Assembly: GCA_016193065.1 (NCBI GenBank)
Contig: JACPSX010000063.1
Coordinates: 1 to 6,116 of the forward strand
Reading direction: 5' to 3'
DNA: 6,116 nucleotides
DNA from: Candidatus Tectimicrobiota bacterium
GTDB taxonomy: Bacteria; JACPSX01
A program made the translations under genes and the position numbers. Below are positions 636 to 5,927 of the stretch, in pieces (positions within the stretch are counted from its first letter, which is position 1; every line of letters begins with the position of its first letter). Under the pieces are notes generated by a model. The model saw only the letters and a program-made list of their open reading frames with translations. It had not been told where the DNA came from and did not search any database.

Positions 636-878
636 ATGAGAGCCGTTCGGGTTCAGAGCGACGGATCAATCAAACTTCCGAGAGAGATTTTGCGACTTTT
701 CCCGAGCACCAGCCAGCTCGCGGTGTGGACTGAGGGCGATATGATCGTCCTCAAGCGGCTGGGATCACTGAGGCCCTCAGAGATCGCGCGGCGAATGCCT
801 GAGAAGGAGATGCCTCTCACAAAGATTGCCGCCGAAGTTCATCGCATGCGTCGGGAAAAGCGGAGCCGGCGTGGCTAA
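636..878 (+). CDS. AbrB/SpoVT-type (VapB-like) antitoxin
   Basis: An 80-residue protein. Residues 1 to about 42 (MRAVRVQSDGSIKLPREILR, then LAVWTEGDMIVLKRL) have the pattern of an AbrB/MazE swapped-hairpin DNA-binding domain: a short strand, a DGSIKLP turn, a helix ending in LF, then a strand pair with EGDMIVLK. The C-terminal half is charged and helical (residues 47-80, rich in Arg, Lys and Glu) and would be the arm that wraps and blocks the toxin. Length fits the family. Its stop overlaps the start of the PIN toxin by 8 nt, so the two are translationally coupled; antitoxin first is the usual order. Autorepression through the palindrome at 586-614 is inferred. Confidence 0.85.
   Translation: MRAVRVQSDGSIKLPREILRLFPSTSQLAVWTEGDMIVLKRLGSLRPSEIARRMPEKEMPLTKIAAEVHRMRREKRSRRG
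862..865 (+). promoter_or_regulatory. Ribosome binding site that decides the toxin start
   Basis: GGAG inside the antitoxin coding sequence, 5 nt before the GTG at 871. It favours GTG 871 over the ATG at 826, which would add 15 residues without family resemblance and would overlap the antitoxin by 53 nt. Confidence 0.55.
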
Positions 879-1305
879 GGCGCGGGTGGTCCTGGATGTG
901 AACGTCTGGATCTCTGGGCTGCTGTGGACTGGAACTCCGAACAGGCTGATTCAAGCAGCCGAGGATGGTGACCTAACGCTGGTGACGACTCCCGCGATTG
1001 TGGAGGAGATTCGTGGCGCATTCGCTCGTCCGAAGTTCGCAGCCAGGATCACAGCCTTGAATACCTCGATGGGAGAACTGATGGAGACTCTGCTCAGCAT
1101 CGTCGAAGTCATTCAGGATCCCAGGATCGAAGCTGTGATTTCGCAGGACCCGGACGATGACAAGATCTTGGCTTGCGCAATGGCCGCTGGGGCAGGCTCG
1201 ATCGTCTCGGGGGACCATCATCTATTGGCCTTGAAGCGATATTCAGGGATTCCGATCGTCACGCCAAAACAATTCTGGGACGCATGGGCAAAGCGGCCAG
1301 AGTGA
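871..1305 (+). CDS. PIN-domain toxin (COG1569 / PIN_3-like ribonuclease)
   Basis: From the GTG start the product is 144 residues, the normal size for a single PIN domain. The PIN core is complete: strand 1 ARVVLDVNVWISGLL with Asp9, TPAIVEEI with Glu45/Glu46, DPDDDKILACAMAAGA with Asp95-97, and GSIVSGDHHLLAL with Asp115, ending in IPIVTPKQFWDAW. These acidic residues coordinate the metal ions used to cut RNA. The LDTNVWxSGL, DPDDDKxLACA and VSGDxHLL signatures point to the COG1569 toxin group. It is translationally coupled to the AbrB-like antitoxin. The acidic residues are intact, so the toxin is probably active; its RNA target cannot be inferred. Confidence 0.88.
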   Translation: MAKARVVLDVNVWISGLLWTGTPNRLIQAAEDGDLTLVTTPAIVEEIRGAFARPKFAARITALNTSMGELMETLLSIVEVIQDPRIEAVISQDPDDDKILACAMAAGAGSIVSGDHHLLALKRYSGIPIVTPKQFWDAWAKRPE

Positions 1306-2547: not shown

Positions 2548-2617
2548 GCCTAACCCGGCGCTGCACCTGACCGCCGCCGCGATAGCGGGTTTAGGCGGCG
2601 GCAGGTGAGCTTGGTCG
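2548..2617 (+). other. attC-like integron recombination site (last half-core diverged)
   Basis: The layout matches an attC site: R'' GCCTAAC (2548-2554, fits RYYYAAC), 5-nt spacer, L'' GCTGCACC (2560-2567), an arm continuing TG, A, CCGCCGCC, a 15-nt loop, GGCGGCGG, then CAGGTG whose last bases form L' GGTGAGC (2604-2610), a 6-nt spacer, and G at 2617. L'' equals the complement of L' plus one extra base (G2563), the known hallmark of attC; A2570 is a second extrahelical base on the same side. The core after the crossover G is ATGCGC, not TTRRRY, so the right half-core is atypical. It lies 69 nt after the VOC stop. Confidence 0.55.
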
Positions 2618-2745
2618 ATGCGCCGACGCGCGCGGCCGTCGCTCCCGTCCAGTCGGGTAACCCGGAGTTGCTCCACGTCTCCGAGCCCGGCGGCTCACGG
2701 TACATTGGGTGCTGACCGCGCCGGCGCTCCGCAGTCGGCGCATCG
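2616..2745. repeat. 12-bp inverted repeat bounding a small gene-less unit
   Basis: CGATGCGCCGAC (2616-2627) and GTCGGCGCATCG (2734-2745) are exact reverse complements. The first begins at the proposed crossover base of the attC-like site; the second is followed directly by an 8-bp hairpin, GGGGCGGC (2745-2752) with GCCGCCCC (2761-2768). This fits a tiny cassette without a gene (about 2618-2774), but the cores GATGCGC/GCGCATC do not follow the GTTRRRY consensus, and a simple hairpin-forming repeat is the alternative. No protein is recognisable inside. Confidence 0.5.
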
Positions 2746-2773
2746 GGGCGGCGGCACGGAGCCGCCCCCGTCC

Positions 2774-2781
2774 GTTAGAGC
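2774..2781 (+). other. Cassette-start core motif before the ankyrin gene
   Basis: GTTAGAGC, exactly complementary to GCTCTAAC at 3969-3976 just after the stop codon of the ankyrin gene. In integron cassettes the first bases (after G) pair with the inverse core of the same cassette's attC, which is what is seen here. The last core base is G rather than the consensus pyrimidine. Confidence 0.45.
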
Positions 2782-2794
2782 GCATTGTGCTATC

Positions 2795-2800
2795 TATAAC
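2795..2800 (+). promoter_or_regulatory. Possible -10 element of the ankyrin gene
   Basis: TATAAC lies in a short AT-rich island (2791-2806) that stands out in GC-rich surroundings, 23 nt before the ATG at 2824. There is no good -35 hexamer at 16-18 nt spacing, so promoter strength is uncertain. Confidence 0.3.
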
Positions 2801-2823
2801 TAAAAGTCGAGTCTGAGCGAACG

Positions 2824-3954
2824 ATGACCAGCGCAGCGTTTAACGCAAGGTTCAATGGCAAGCGCGCTCTGTGCGCCCTTGCCATCGTCATCATGGTCGC
2901 AGCCGCCGCGGGTTGCGATGCGGGCATGGGGCCGTTGCATGAGGCCGCTATGACCGGAAACGCTGAAGTCGTGAAGTCCTGGATCGCACAAAAACGCAAC
3001 CTCGACGTCACCTTCGACGAACCGTCGAGAGGCCTCGAAGGCAACTACTCCCGGGCGCGAGGGGTGACCGCGCTGATGATGGCCGCCAGGACGGGGCAAT
3101 TCGAGATCGTGAAGCTGCTGGTGGAAGGCGGGGCGAATCTGTACGCCGAGTCGCATTGGCCCGACGGAGCGCATCCGCGCAACGCGTTCGACTACGCTGT
3201 CGAGAACGCGGTGCAGAAATCGGGAAACCCTGAAGCCGTGGAATACCTGTGGGCCAAATCGGACCGCGTCCGCTTCGCGGCCCGGCTCGACGAGCATATC
3301 GCCGCGAGCTGCCGGCGCACCTGCAACGACAAGTCCGGCGGCGACGCGCGCGGAAACCTCGCCTTGTTTCTGCTCGGCATCGCCCCCGACCGGCAGCGCG
3401 GCAAAGGCATAAGCGAAGCGGCATGCTTTTCGCTGCAGCCGCTCGAGCTCCTGACTTTTCTCGACAAGCACGCGGTACGGTTCCCGAAGAACACGCTTCA
3501 CTGCGCGGTCTATTACCCTGCGGTGAGAAGTCAGCATTCCCCGGAAGAGCGAATCGCCATGGCGTCCTTCTTTCTCGACCACGGCGCCGATCCGGAGGAT
3601 CAGATCCCGGGCGTCGGCTATACCCCGCTGATGGGCGCCGCTTCCACGCACGATATTGAAATGGTGAAGTTGCTTCTGGCGCGGGGCGCAAACCCCAATG
3701 CACGGAACCCGGCGGGCGTTACCGCCATCGGTTTAGCCGCCAATATCTGCATCTCCGGTGTAGGCGCAAACGACGTCGAGCCAAGGCAGAAGCCTCAACT
3801 CGCCGTGATCGAATACCTCGCGCAGTCCGGTGCGGACGCGAAACTGTATGCATCCGAAAGCGGGCGTTCGCAATTGCAAATCCTGACGAACTGTTGCAGC
3901 CGCCAGCCGCATACCGGGACCCAGCGGCGAATATGCGAGGTTTTCGGTTTGTGA
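2824..3954 (+). CDS. Ankyrin-repeat lipoprotein
   Basis: A 376-residue protein. Residues 1-31 form a lipoprotein signal: basic n-region (RFNGKR), hydrophobic core LCALAIVIMVAAAA, lipobox AAGC with Cys31. Asp at +2 would favour retention in the inner membrane by the E. coli Lol rule. Ankyrin repeats follow: about 36-66 (GPLHEAAMTGNAEVVKSWI), 80-110 (GVTALMMAARTGQFEIVKLL, GGANLYAES), a diverged one at 223-259 (NTLHCAV...FFLDHGADPED), 265-295 (GYTPLMGAAS...VKLLLARGANPNARN) and 298-340 (GVTAIGLAAN...IEYLAQSGADAKL). The middle (110-222) has weak repeat character. Several Cys fit an oxidising periplasm. Such repeats bind proteins; the partner is unknown. The ribosome binding site is weak (GAG at 2815), but no other in-frame start keeps the signal peptide. 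It sits in a possible integron cassette. Confidence 0.85.
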   Translation: MTSAAFNARFNGKRALCALAIVIMVAAAAGCDAGMGPLHEAAMTGNAEVVKSWIAQKRNLDVTFDEPSRGLEGNYSRARGVTALMMAARTGQFEIVKLLVEGGANLYAESHWPDGAHPRNAFDYAVENAVQKSGNPEAVEYLWAKSDRVRFAARLDEHIAASCRRTCNDKSGGDARGNLALFLLGIAPDRQRGKGISEAACFSLQPLELLTFLDKHAVRFPKNTLHCAVYYPAVRSQHSPEERIAMASFFLDHGADPEDQIPGVGYTPLMGAASTHDIEMVKLLLARGANPNARNPAGVTAIGLAANICISGVGANDVEPRQKPQLAVIEYLAQSGADAKLYASESGRSQLQILTNCCSRQPHTGTQRRICEVFGL

Positions 3955-3968
3955 TGGGTGAAAACCGA

Positions 3969-4035
3969 GCTCTAACCAATAAGGATTGAGACGACCACGG
4001 CGCTTTATCGGGGTCGTCTCAATCCATTGTTCAAG
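3969..4035 (+). other. Long hairpin after the ankyrin gene, attC-like
   Basis: Perfect 14-bp stem GGATTGAGACGACC (3983-3996) with GGTCGTCTCAATCC (4012-4025) and a 15-nt loop. It is extended by CAAT/ATTG across two unpaired A on the left side, and flanked by GCTCTAAC (3969-3976) and GTTCAAG (4029-4035). It starts 15 nt after the stop codon, as attC sites do. Unpaired bases on the left arm also fit attC. No T run follows, so it is not a standard intrinsic terminator, although it could still act to end or stabilise the transcript. The right spacer is short (3 nt) and the right core is GTTCAAG rather than GTTRRRY. Confidence 0.5.
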
Positions 4036-4373
4036 AAGCCCGAAGCGGCGACGACCTGTTGGCACGATCTCTGCTATTAGGGTAATGCTTCGATGCGGGA
4101 CGTGGGCAGGAGAGAGAGGTACTGTCCTCTCTGGATGGTGTTGCGGCTCTTCACTCCGCAGAGGCAGATACTGGGTGGGTTGGGCATGAGAGTTCCCACC
4201 GGAAACGGTCGTTCAGGAATCGACGGGTATCATACAAGGCTCGCCCGTTAGACGCAAGGTCGCGCTGATGTCGTGAGGGGATTCTGCCGCGAAGCGGCTT
4301 ACTTGAACAGCAGGTTGCAGCGGACGCTCGCAAGCGAGCGCCGGGTAGTGGGTCAGTTTCAAAAATCTGGAGG
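4036..4373. other. Gene-poor unit between the ankyrin and membrane-protein genes
   Basis: No recognisable gene. The longest plausible plus-strand frame is a 52-residue one from ATG 4093 to TAG 4249-4251, with no ribosome binding site and no known relatives, so I do not call it. Hairpins are present: AGAGAGG/CCTCTCT (4113-4132), GCCGC/GCGGC (4286-4298) and CGCTCGC-AA-GCGAGCG (4325-4340). CTTGAAC at 4302-4308 is the exact complement of GTTCAAG at 4029-4035, and the match extends to GCTT/AAGC if one A (4301) is unpaired, as expected for a cassette start and its own inverse core. The stem between 4309 and the next possible core (GTTTCAA at 4356 or GTTAACT at 4373) pairs poorly except at its tip. 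Confidence 0.4.
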
Positions 4374-5141
4374 TTAACTTGCGCTGTTGTGCTTCTCGCA
4401 GGGCTTGGCGTAGGTCGGCACGTAGCCCGGACCACCATTTTCGGGGAAGTTGGTCAGATCCGTCCCCCAATAGATATTGCAAAATTCCAACCTGTGGGGA
4501 TGGCCGAATACGTCCGTATATCTGATCTCTCCGAATACGTAGATCCGCTTGGTTCCCGCCATGACCGCCGATTGATCCGCCCCCTCCGCAGTCAGTTTTC
4601 CTCCGCGTTGCATTATGGCATGTTCAATTCCTGGACTCATTATCGTGATGCCCTCTTGACGGTTCCCTGGTCCGAGGTTGGCTATCTCGTTGGGAGTCAG
4701 GGGCGGCCTGACGATCATCCCGGCAAACTGCTCCACATCCTTCGCGTAGGTTTTCCCACTGTTGCCAATGTTTGTGTAATTTTCAAGCGGGCAGTTGTCG
4801 CTGACGCAATAGAGGAATCCCGGCCTTGCATAGAGATAGGCCCGTTCGGAGAGTTCGGAGGAAAGTTTCGATTCTCGCAACTGATTTCCCATAGCGCACC
4901 ATTGCATAACAGAGGTGACGACGAGAGCCAAGGTAAAGAGTGCTATCCAACCGCTAGAAGCCTCTACGGAAAATACCTTGCGTATCCATTTGAGCCACTT
5001 CTGCTGTATGGTCTTCTGGCCGGCGTGGGGATGCTCCTGTGGCAATTGAGCTGGTGCTTTATCCAGGGAGGTGGGCGACTCTCCGTCGGATTGATCGGAC
5101 TTGCCCTCGGACTTCTGTTGTTTGTTCTGTTCCTTCATCAT
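4374..5141 (-). CDS. Single-pass membrane protein of unknown function
   Basis: A 255-residue protein, read from the ATG at 5141-5139. The N-terminal 45 residues are polar and disordered (Lys, Gln, Ser, Glu). Then comes a basic stretch KWLKWIRK and one membrane helix at about residues 64-81 (GWIALFTLALVVTSVMQW), which predicts the N-terminus inside and a C-terminal domain of about 165 residues outside the inner membrane. The C-terminal part contains RAYLYARPG, NIGNSGKTYAKDVE and IYVFGEIRYTDVFG followed by HRLEFCNIYWG. I recall this pattern (one TM helix, RAY/W motif, N-x-G-K-T, GxIxYxDVFGxxH, FC) from uncharacterised proteins of soil bacteria, but know no function. Upstream GGAGGG (5156-5151) is 9 nt from ATG 5141; the TTG at 5150 abuts it and is unusable. 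The opposite-strand frame over the same DNA is a shadow. Confidence 0.75.
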   Translation of the reverse strand: MMKEQNKQQKSEGKSDQSDGESPTSLDKAPAQLPQEHPHAGQKTIQQKWLKWIRKVFSVEASSGWIALFTLALVVTSVMQWCAMGNQLRESKLSSELSERAYLYARPGFLYCVSDNCPLENYTNIGNSGKTYAKDVEQFAGMIVRPPLTPNEIANLGPGNRQEGITIMSPGIEHAIMQRGGKLTAEGADQSAVMAGTKRIYVFGEIRYTDVFGHPHRLEFCNIYWGTDLTNFPENGGPGYVPTYAKPCEKHNSAS

Positions 5142-5150
5142 TTGGCTCAA

Positions 5151-5156
5151 CCCTCC
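5151..5156 (-). promoter_or_regulatory. Ribosome binding site deciding the membrane-protein start
   Basis: GGAGGG on the minus strand, 9 nt before ATG 5141 and directly touching the in-frame TTG at 5150, which rules the TTG out. A second strong Shine-Dalgarno-like run, GAGGAGG, lies further upstream at about 5171-5177 and leads only into a short frame beginning GTG GCG CAG and ending TGA at the TTG. Confidence 0.55.
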
Positions 5157-5207
5157 GCTTCGCCCTGCGCCACCTCCTCGCCTAGGATTCTCGCAGCCAA
5201 TTCTTTA

Positions 5208-5435
5208 TCACTTGCGATCCATCAGCGCCACGATTTCTTCAAGGGCCCAGACGTGATCCGCCACCCCCGCCTCCATGGCCGGAGTGACCCGAAGGGTCTG
5301 GTGAATCCTCCCGAAGTTGTACCACATGAAGTGGAGGGCCACGGCAGCCTCTAGGTTTTCTACCTTCTTCGAGAAGGCGTTGGTCAGACGGGTAAAGCGC
5401 CGCATGCTCATGCGCATACGTTGGTGCAGAAACAA
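5208..5435 (-). pseudogene. C-terminal remnant of an IS1-type DDE transposase
   Basis: The minus-strand frame contains MRMSMRRFTRLTNAFSKKVE, then ALHFMWYNFGRIHQTLRVTP, AMEAGVADHVWALEEIVAL, ending at TGA 5210-5208. This matches the C-terminal end of transposases that I recall being annotated as IS1 family, where intact members carry ERQNLTMRMxMRRFTRLTNxFSKK. Here the residues before MRMSMRR are LFLHQR, so homology stops at about 5415. The catalytic core and N-terminus (usually 150-250 residues more) are absent, with a stop codon upstream in frame and no continuation to the right. It is a dead fragment; any TTG start at 5435 is not meaningful. Family assignment is from memory. Confidence 0.78.
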
Positions 5436-5927
5436 CTTCCTGTCTAGCCCACCACGGCGGCTTTCGCGGCGTCAAGAGGCGAAGGGGATTGCCCCTCAGC
5501 TCTCAGGCGATAACCTCTCTGGCCCGTGGCCCGGGGCAAGGTGCACGTCGGCGGGCCGACATTCGGGTGGCGGCGGAAAGTCGCCCCCGGGTGATCCCGG
5601 GGGCGATGGGGACACCCGGTGCGCCCGTCCTTGAGCACGCCGGTCCCCGGCGGCGTCTGCGCCACGCCCGTCGCCATGCTCCACAAAACTTGTTGCAATC
5701 CTTCGAGCGGCCCTCAGCCCTTTCCTCTTGACTTGCCCCTTCGAGGGGCGCTAGCGTTTCCCCGCACGTGCCCCGGTGTCTTCACCTCAGCCTGGTGAGG
5801 ACGGCTCCGCCGGGCACGCAGGAGCCCGCCGACGGCAGCCCGATCTGCCCTTGGGGGGTTCTCCCTTCGAAGGGCCGTCACTCTTCCTGGGTGGGGCGAT
5901 TTCGCTACCGAGCGAAGTGAATCCGGC
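5436..5927. other. Gene-free, hairpin-dense stretch
   Basis: No recognisable gene on either strand; open frames are Pro/Arg/Gly-rich shadows. Many short perfect stems follow one another: GTCGG/CCGAC (5547-5560), the strong hairpin at 5581-5606, GCCCCT-TCG-AGGGGC (5735-5749), GGCTCC/GGAGCC (5803-5826), the palindrome CCCTTCGAAGGG (5863-5874) and TTCGCT-ACCG-AGCGAA (5901-5916). It lies between a transposase scrap and the start of the last gene and may hold that gene's leader. I recognise no known riboswitch or RNA family in it. Confidence 0.45.
5581..5606. repeat. Strong 11-bp GC hairpin with four-base loop
   Basis: TCGCCCCCGGG (5581-5591), loop TGAT, CCCGGGGGCGA (5596-5606): perfect pairing, almost all GC. 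No T run on either side, so it is not a canonical terminator. An imperfect GGGGAC...GTCCCC pairing follows directly (about 5607-5656). It could be a structural element, a protein binding site or part of a repeat family. Confidence 0.7.

What the first reader, a model, noticed from the sequence alone, without database searches (positions are those of the whole stretch)
2548..4373. Possible integron cassette array without integrase, recognised by start/end complementarity
Seen: three successive units obey the same rule. GATGCGCCGAC at 2617 pairs exactly with 2734-2744; GTTAGAGC at 2774 pairs exactly with GCTCTAAC at 3969; GTTCAAG at 4029 pairs exactly with CTTGAAC at 4302. Each right-hand motif is followed by hairpin-forming sequence and then by the next unit's left-hand motif. 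Known: in integron cassettes the first bases complement the inverse core of the cassette's own attC. Inferred: 2618-2774, 2775-4029 and 4030 to about 4356 or 4373 are cassettes, one of them carrying the ankyrin lipoprotein. Cores deviate from GTTRRRY and the first and third sites fold poorly, so the array is either decayed or uses non-standard sites.
Basis: partly seen in the sequence, partly recalled or inferred. Interest (0 to 1): 0.7.

Follow-up and report, generated by a model that had tools for sequence, protein, structure and literature searches.

The report
Jumping element splits integron cassette site
This stretch is a small worn piece of an integron cassette array in which what looked like a third gene cassette is a shrunken transposable element of the IS91 kind; related elements sit at exactly the same point of integron recombination sites in many bacterial phyla, including a drug-resistance plasmid of E. 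coli.

Summary
Other evidence confirms cassettes. The site at 2548-2623 is a textbook attC (covariance model 27.7 bits, E 1.6e-5; the known aadA1 and cmlA1 attC score 28.9 and 24.2), although its core reads GAT. The ankyrin lipoprotein unit (2775-3976) obeys the start/end rule. The third 'cassette' is something else: 3977-4308 is a 332-bp, internally deleted IS91-family element, inserted between the inverse core (GCTCTAAC) and the hairpin of the ankyrin cassette's own attC. GTTCAAG/CTTGAAC are its inverted repeats. Intact relatives (about 2.1-2.6 kb) encode an IS91 transposase plus a tyrosine recombinase. In 56 of 77 tested copies the attC model matches exactly at the junction (0.05 expected). 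An E. coli IncC plasmid copy splits the class 1 aadA1 attC at the same point, without gain or loss of bases. I found no description of an attC-targeting IS91 group; IS1111-attC elements and group IIC-attC introns are the precedents. The recombinase's role is unknown.

The parts
2548..2624 (+). attC site: inverse core GCCTAAC 2548-2554, hairpin with two extrahelical bases, core GATGCGCC 2617-2624
   Evidence: attC model 27.7 bits, E 1.6e-5; fold z -2.4
2618..2773 (+). short unit without clear gene, start GATGCGCCGAC complementary to GTCGGCGCATC at 2734-2744, with hairpin 2745-2773
   Evidence: exact pair; hairpin not found by the attC model, fold z -1.5; decayed or non-standard
2775..3976 (+). 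ankyrin cassette body: core GTTAGAGC 2774-2781 to inverse core GCTCTAAC 3969-3976
   Evidence: 8/8 complementarity, position fixed independently by the element's left end
2824..3954 (+). ankyrin-repeat lipoprotein gene, 376 aa
   Evidence: Pfam Ank_2 1.1e-26; lipoprotein signal by eye (VAAAAGC)
3977..4308 (-). internally deleted IS91-like element (332 bp), inserted in the attC of the ankyrin cassette
   Evidence: both ends conserved with intact 2.1-2.6 kb elements and other short copies
3977..4040 (-). left end: hairpin 3977-4028 and inverted repeat GTTCAAGAAGCC 4029-4040 (oriIS-like end by position after the transposase in relatives)
   Evidence: conserved in C73, C131 and some twenty loci of other phyla; fold z -7
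4284..4308 (-). right end: small hairpin CTGCCGCGAAGCGGC and inverted repeat GGCTTACTTGAAC
   Evidence: conserved in C48, C62, C187 and 109 right ends in the held loci
4309..4343 (+). remaining 5' arm and inner stem of the ankyrin cassette's attC; 3' arm lost
   Evidence: AAC|AGCAGGTT G CAGCGG A CGCTCGC..GCGAGCGCCG fits the attC 5' arm with both extrahelical bases (sequence; template); not found by the model

Best explanation
Window 2548 to ~4343 is a fragment of an integron cassette array (CALIN-like). The ankyrin-lipoprotein cassette's attC was invaded by an IS91-family element, which inserted between the inverse core RYYYAAC and the attC hairpin. The copy here has lost its genes and keeps only both ends (332 bp). 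Shown: the position of the element, its conserved ends, the genes of intact relatives, and precise insertion without target duplication in an E. coli plasmid. Inferred: transposition as single-stranded DNA by the Y2 (HUH) transposase, with the hairpin end placed next to GTTRRRY on the bottom strand of attC, the strand that folds for integron recombination. The insertion separates the gene from its attC hairpin. The role of the accessory tyrosine recombinase is unknown; help in target choice is possible.
For: 1) The same two ends bound 2.1-2.6 kb elements in L071, L086, L088, L089, L102, L104, L122, L147, L158, L180 and short ones (219-411 bp) in L092, L152, L169; intact ones carry an IS91 transposase (NF033538, 346.7 bits against cut-off 125) and a tyrosine recombinase. 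2) Right end next to attC: template score >=13 in 54 of 109 ends, against 70 of 1822 control AAC|A sites and 21 of 2180 shuffles; 51 of the 54 have the extrahelical base in the 5' arm. attC model not trained on these sites: 56 of 77 ends hit exactly at the junction, 0.05 expected. 3) Left end: the 8-9 nt before the element are exactly complementary to the start of the upstream cassette, right after an attC, in 9 of 14 loci with at least 700 nt upstream, window included; chance 0.006-0.05 each. 4) E. coli plasmid RCS41_p: GTCTAAC|element|AATTCGTTCAAGCC; the joined flanks equal the intact aadA1 attC (1,905 of the 5000 records kept match at >=99%). 5) Photobacterium pPHDD1: same ends between GGCATAAC and a long attC-like sequence. 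6) Own C62 occupied site against an uninterrupted near-identical attC in Rokubacteria L086:7032-7103.
Against: The window copy has no transposase gene, and the assembled genome holds only a transposase fragment with stops, so activity cannot be inferred here. The attC remainder at 4309 has lost its 3' arm, so the occupied site is recognised by its 5' arm only. The genome scan used a 17-mer ending in AACAA, which favours attC-like flanks, and the 70 loci were picked for having the element arm. About half of all right ends have no clear attC after them (decayed sites or other targets).
Confidence: 0.88

Rival explanations
1. One reading: 4030 to ~4356 is a third gene cassette and 3974-4029 the attC of the ankyrin cassette, in a decayed or non-standard array.
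For: Start/end complementarity GTTCAAG/CTTGAAC and a hairpin on each side.
Against: The 3977-4041 hairpin stays the same after different genes and the sequence before 4308 stays the same before different hairpins, in many genomes; IS91 and recombinase genes lie between these ends in intact copies; the aadA1 empty site. The hairpin has no extrahelical bases.
Confidence: 0.05
2. Mirror-image integron: the conserved right end is an attI with promoter, next to an IntI-like recombinase, and cassettes are [attC+gene] units exchanged at R''.
For: Recombinase gene divergent 100-230 bp from the conserved leader, variable attC then gene after it.
Against: IS91 transposase beside the recombinase; insertion in the middle of ordinary arrays and in a class 1 aadA1 attC; recombinase below the IntI cut-off and without the IntI domain.
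Confidence: 0.03
3. The elements are not attC-specific: they go to hairpins or terminators in general (as group IIC introns do), and attC enrichment reflects the search motif.
For: About half the right ends lack a clear attC; the scan motif ended in AACAA.
Against: The left flank is the inverse core of an identifiable cassette in 9 of 14 loci; extrahelical-base geometry specific to attC in 51 of 54.
Confidence: 0.2

Closest known systems
IS91 family insertion sequences (Y2/HUH transposase) and ISCR elements
   Same: Intact relatives encode an IS91 transposase over the NCBIfam cut-off; two different, structured ends; no target duplication
   Different: A second gene for a tyrosine recombinase; inserted in integron attC sites next to GTTRRRY. 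PMC9229058 reports an IS91-like element (ISShvi3) adjacent to an attC, read as a new cassette structure; PMC12772301 reports attC right after ISCR28. Neither describes attC targeting by IS91 elements.
IS1111-attC group (ISKpn4, ISPst6 and others)
   Same: Insertion sequences that target attC sites of cassettes (PMC11187229, citing Tetu and Holmes 2008, Post and Hall 2009)
   Different: IS1111 elements use a DEDD transposase guided by a seekRNA; here a Y2 transposase plus tyrosine recombinase
Group IIC-attC introns
   Same: Insert at TTGT/T in attC and separate gene from attC (PMC7923331, PMC8876359); practically the same point of attC
   Different: Retroelement RNA with GUGYG start and reverse transcriptase; none here, and no Rfam match
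CALIN (cluster of attC sites lacking integrase)
   Same: attC and cassettes without an integrase on the contig
   Different: Only one site passes the model, the rest are decayed or interrupted

Membership tests
Integron cassette array / CALIN | attC site with R''-L''-L'-R' and extrahelical bases | tested here: met
   2548-2623, 27.7 bits, E 1.6e-5; other window sites not detected
Integron cassette array / CALIN | at least two attC sites within about 4 kb | tested here: inconclusive
   second site (2734-2781) only by complementarity and hairpin; third is a remainder at 4309-4343
Integron cassette array / CALIN | cassette start complementary to own inverse core | tested here: met
   ankyrin unit 8/8, short unit 11/11; not significant without position
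Complete integron | intact intI next to the array | tested here: not met
   no intI in the 6116-base contig; only fragments below the cut-off in the genome
IS91 family (the element group) | Y2 transposase over family cut-off | tested here: met
   L086 transposase NF033538 346.7/125; the window copy itself has none
IS91 family (the element group) | insertion without target duplication | tested here: met
   RCS41_p flanks join to the intact aadA1 attC
IS91 family (the element group) | rolling-circle transposition | not testable with these tools
   inferred from the transposase family
Integron integrase (accessory recombinase) | TIGR02249 over cut-off and IntI-specific additional domain | tested here: not met
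   179.7 against 265 bits; gap of about 33 columns at the IntI-specific region
IS1111-attC | DEDD (IS110/IS1111) transposase | tested here: not met
   transposase is Y2_Tnp/Zn_Tnp_IS91
Group IIC-attC intron | intron RNA domains and reverse transcriptase | tested here: not met
   no Rfam match in the window; element ends do not start GTGYG

The most novel reading that the evidence does not exclude
The IS91-attC elements mimic cassettes: their ends are kept complementary (GTTCAAG/CTTGAAC in the main group, GTTGAAC/GTTCAAC in E. coli RCS41_p), beginning GTT and ending AAC. After insertion, the element plus the trapped attC hairpin therefore forms a formal cassette between two AAC-hairpin-GTT sites, which an integron integrase could move, while the element's own IntI-like recombinase recognises attC. 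The element would travel both by rolling-circle transposition and as a cassette.
Probability: 0.2. Interest if true: 0.75.

Novelty: new variant of a known kind. Interest (0 to 1): 0.55.

Why it matters
A third, unrelated kind of mobile element (after IS1111-attC and group IIC-attC introns) would have evolved to land at the same point of integron recombination sites, here across many phyla and in a class 1 resistance integron. It can cut gene cassettes off from their recombination hairpin, immobilising them or turning them into composite cassettes. Because its ends imitate cassette boundaries, it can mislead integron annotation, as it did here and perhaps in reports of attC sites next to IS91-like and ISCR elements.

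Tried and rejected
Mirror-image integron model (conserved leader as attI, [attC+gene] cassettes): held, dropped when IS91 transposases appeared between the ends and the aadA1 empty site was found. IS200/IS605 and group II intron readings of the hairpin end: considered, dropped for lack of matching genes and ends. Rfam: no hit. Relatives of the genome: 40 searched, none closer than domain, no homologous locus. Promoter scan of the element: nothing, although other copies show TATAAT/TACAAT-like boxes before the right end (by eye). Tetu and Holmes 2008 is not held, so IS1111-attC details come from papers citing it.

Full report
What the window is. It is the whole contig C206 of a 2.9-Mb, 294-contig genome (86% complete) without close relatives in the set: all 40 'relatives' share only the domain. 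Genes: an antitoxin-like small protein and a PIN-family toxin (636-1305), a truncated glyoxalase-like ORF (2182-2478), the ankyrin lipoprotein (2824-3954), a 258-aa ORF without family (4374-5150, minus).

Checking the observation. The three inverted pairs are exact. Against Markov shuffles they are not remarkable as bare matches: 8-mers 251 against 201, 7-mers 238 against 195, and an 11-mer pair in 23% of shuffles. The argument therefore has to come from context.

Is there a cassette array? I built a covariance model of attC from 28 internal array sites of other genomes. In the window it finds one site, 2548-2623, 27.7 bits, E 1.6e-5. As controls it finds the known aadA1 and cmlA1 attC at 28.9 and 24.2 bits in a plasmid. 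The site has the standard 8 + extrahelical + 6 + extrahelical spacing; only its core is GAT instead of GTT. In the same genome the model finds sites on C62 (two), C187, C48 and C7. On C62 an 828-aa helicase-like gene lies between GTTAGCTTGCC and GGCAAGCTAAC, with an attC on either side: a complete cassette. Fragments of integron integrases occur on many contigs. So the array reading is right; the window's array has no integrase and is worn.

What the third unit is. The hairpin at 3977-4028 and the following GTTCAAGAAGCCC recur on C73 and C131 after other genes, and the sequence ending GCGGCTTACTTGAAC recurs on C48, C62 and C187 before other hairpins. In some twenty loci the left-end hairpin is similar and the inverse core before it differs. 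Both ends sit on one locus 2.1-2.6 kb apart in ten loci and 219-411 bp apart in three others besides the window. Between them, in intact copies, lie a tyrosine recombinase gene and an IS91 transposase gene, adjacent and in the same direction. The transposase passes the IS91 family cut-off (346.7 against 125 bits), while the recombinase stays below the integron-integrase cut-off and lacks the IntI-specific domain. The window copy is thus an internally deleted, non-autonomous element with both ends, and the assembled genome has only a broken transposase fragment.

Where it inserts. After the right end, an attC-like arrangement scores 13 or more in 54 of 109 ends, against 3.8% of control sites and 1% of shuffles; 51 of 54 carry the extrahelical base in the 5' arm. 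The attC model, trained without these sites, hits 56 of 77 right ends exactly at the junction, where 0.05 would be expected (loci chosen for having the element arm). Before the left end, the inverse core is exactly complementary to the start of the upstream cassette in 9 of 14 testable loci, window included. The clearest case is E. coli IncC plasmid RCS41_p. Its class 1 integron has intI1, aac(6')-Ib, aadA2, cmlA1, aadA1, then the element, then qacEdelta1 and sul1; the aadA1 attC is split as GTCTAAC | element | AATTCGTTCAAG. The joined flanks give the intact aadA1 attC, matched at 99% or more by 1,905 of the 5000 records kept. Photobacterium pPHDD1 has the same ends between GGCATAAC and a long attC-like sequence. 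More distant IS91-plus-recombinase elements (Herpetosiphon, Bradyrhizobium) show no such ends near the genes, so the recombinase alone does not imply attC targeting.

How it probably works (inferred). IS91 transposases act on single strands and place the hairpin end next to a short target (family knowledge, not tested). Here that target is GTTRRRY, read on the bottom strand of attC, next to a hairpin that forms in single-stranded DNA. The outcome separates the gene with its inverse core from the hairpin. For the ankyrin cassette, the hairpin now lies 332 bp away with CTTGAAC as a substitute inverse core, and its 3' arm has decayed, so the cassette is probably immobile.

Comparison with the literature held. 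I found no description of attC-targeting IS91 elements. PMC9229058 reports an IS91-like element next to an attC and calls it a new cassette structure, adding that no IS interrupting attC was detected. PMC12772301 notes attC sites right after ISCR28. Both would fit the present model but were not tested here. Known attC invaders are IS1111-attC elements and group IIC-attC introns. ISfinder itself could not be searched, and most subscription papers are not held, so an earlier description cannot be excluded.

Noticed in passing
L015 (C62) ~2932-5706, minus strand: Complete cassette with an 828-aa helicase-like gene: starts GTTAGCTTGCC, ends GGCAAGCTAAC (11/11), attC model hits of 43.0 and 47.6 bits at its two ends; an element end sits in the upstream attC.
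   Followed up: partly
C49, C131, C188, C98, C145, C48, C41, C103, C73 of the same genome: Many fragments of integron integrases, all broken; on C73 and C131 the C-terminal piece lies just upstream of cassette-like genes in the same direction, followed by a repeated promoter-like region also found on C187:4443-4611 and C73:4665-4794.
   Followed up: partly
L017 (C131) 4299-4502 and 7571-7774: A transporter gene tail (SLC13-like by eye) is present twice, 81% identical, on either side of the integron remnant.
   Followed up: no
window 4344-4362 and L014 (C187) ~128-150: Both attC remainders break off near a similar GTGGGTCA/TTGGGTCA sequence, perhaps the end of another insertion sequence.
   Followed up: no
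L169, 3' of 4568 (minus orientation); window 2617: attC cores with GAT instead of GTT (GTCGATAAGC in L169, GTCGATGCGC in the window), in the window with a matching ATC in the next inverse core.
   Followed up: no
window 636-1305: AbrB/SpoVT-like small protein (by eye) overlapping a PIN_3 domain toxin (TIGR00305, PF13470): a toxin-antitoxin pair.
   Followed up: no
window 4374-5150, minus: 258-aa ORF with one membrane segment by eye and no Pfam or NCBIfam match; its stop codon overlaps GTTAACT.
   Followed up: no
L102 4144-6415 (Planctomycetes TBK1r): Textbook cassette array: four consecutive units with exact start/end complementarity, starting right after an IS91-attC element.
   Followed up: partly
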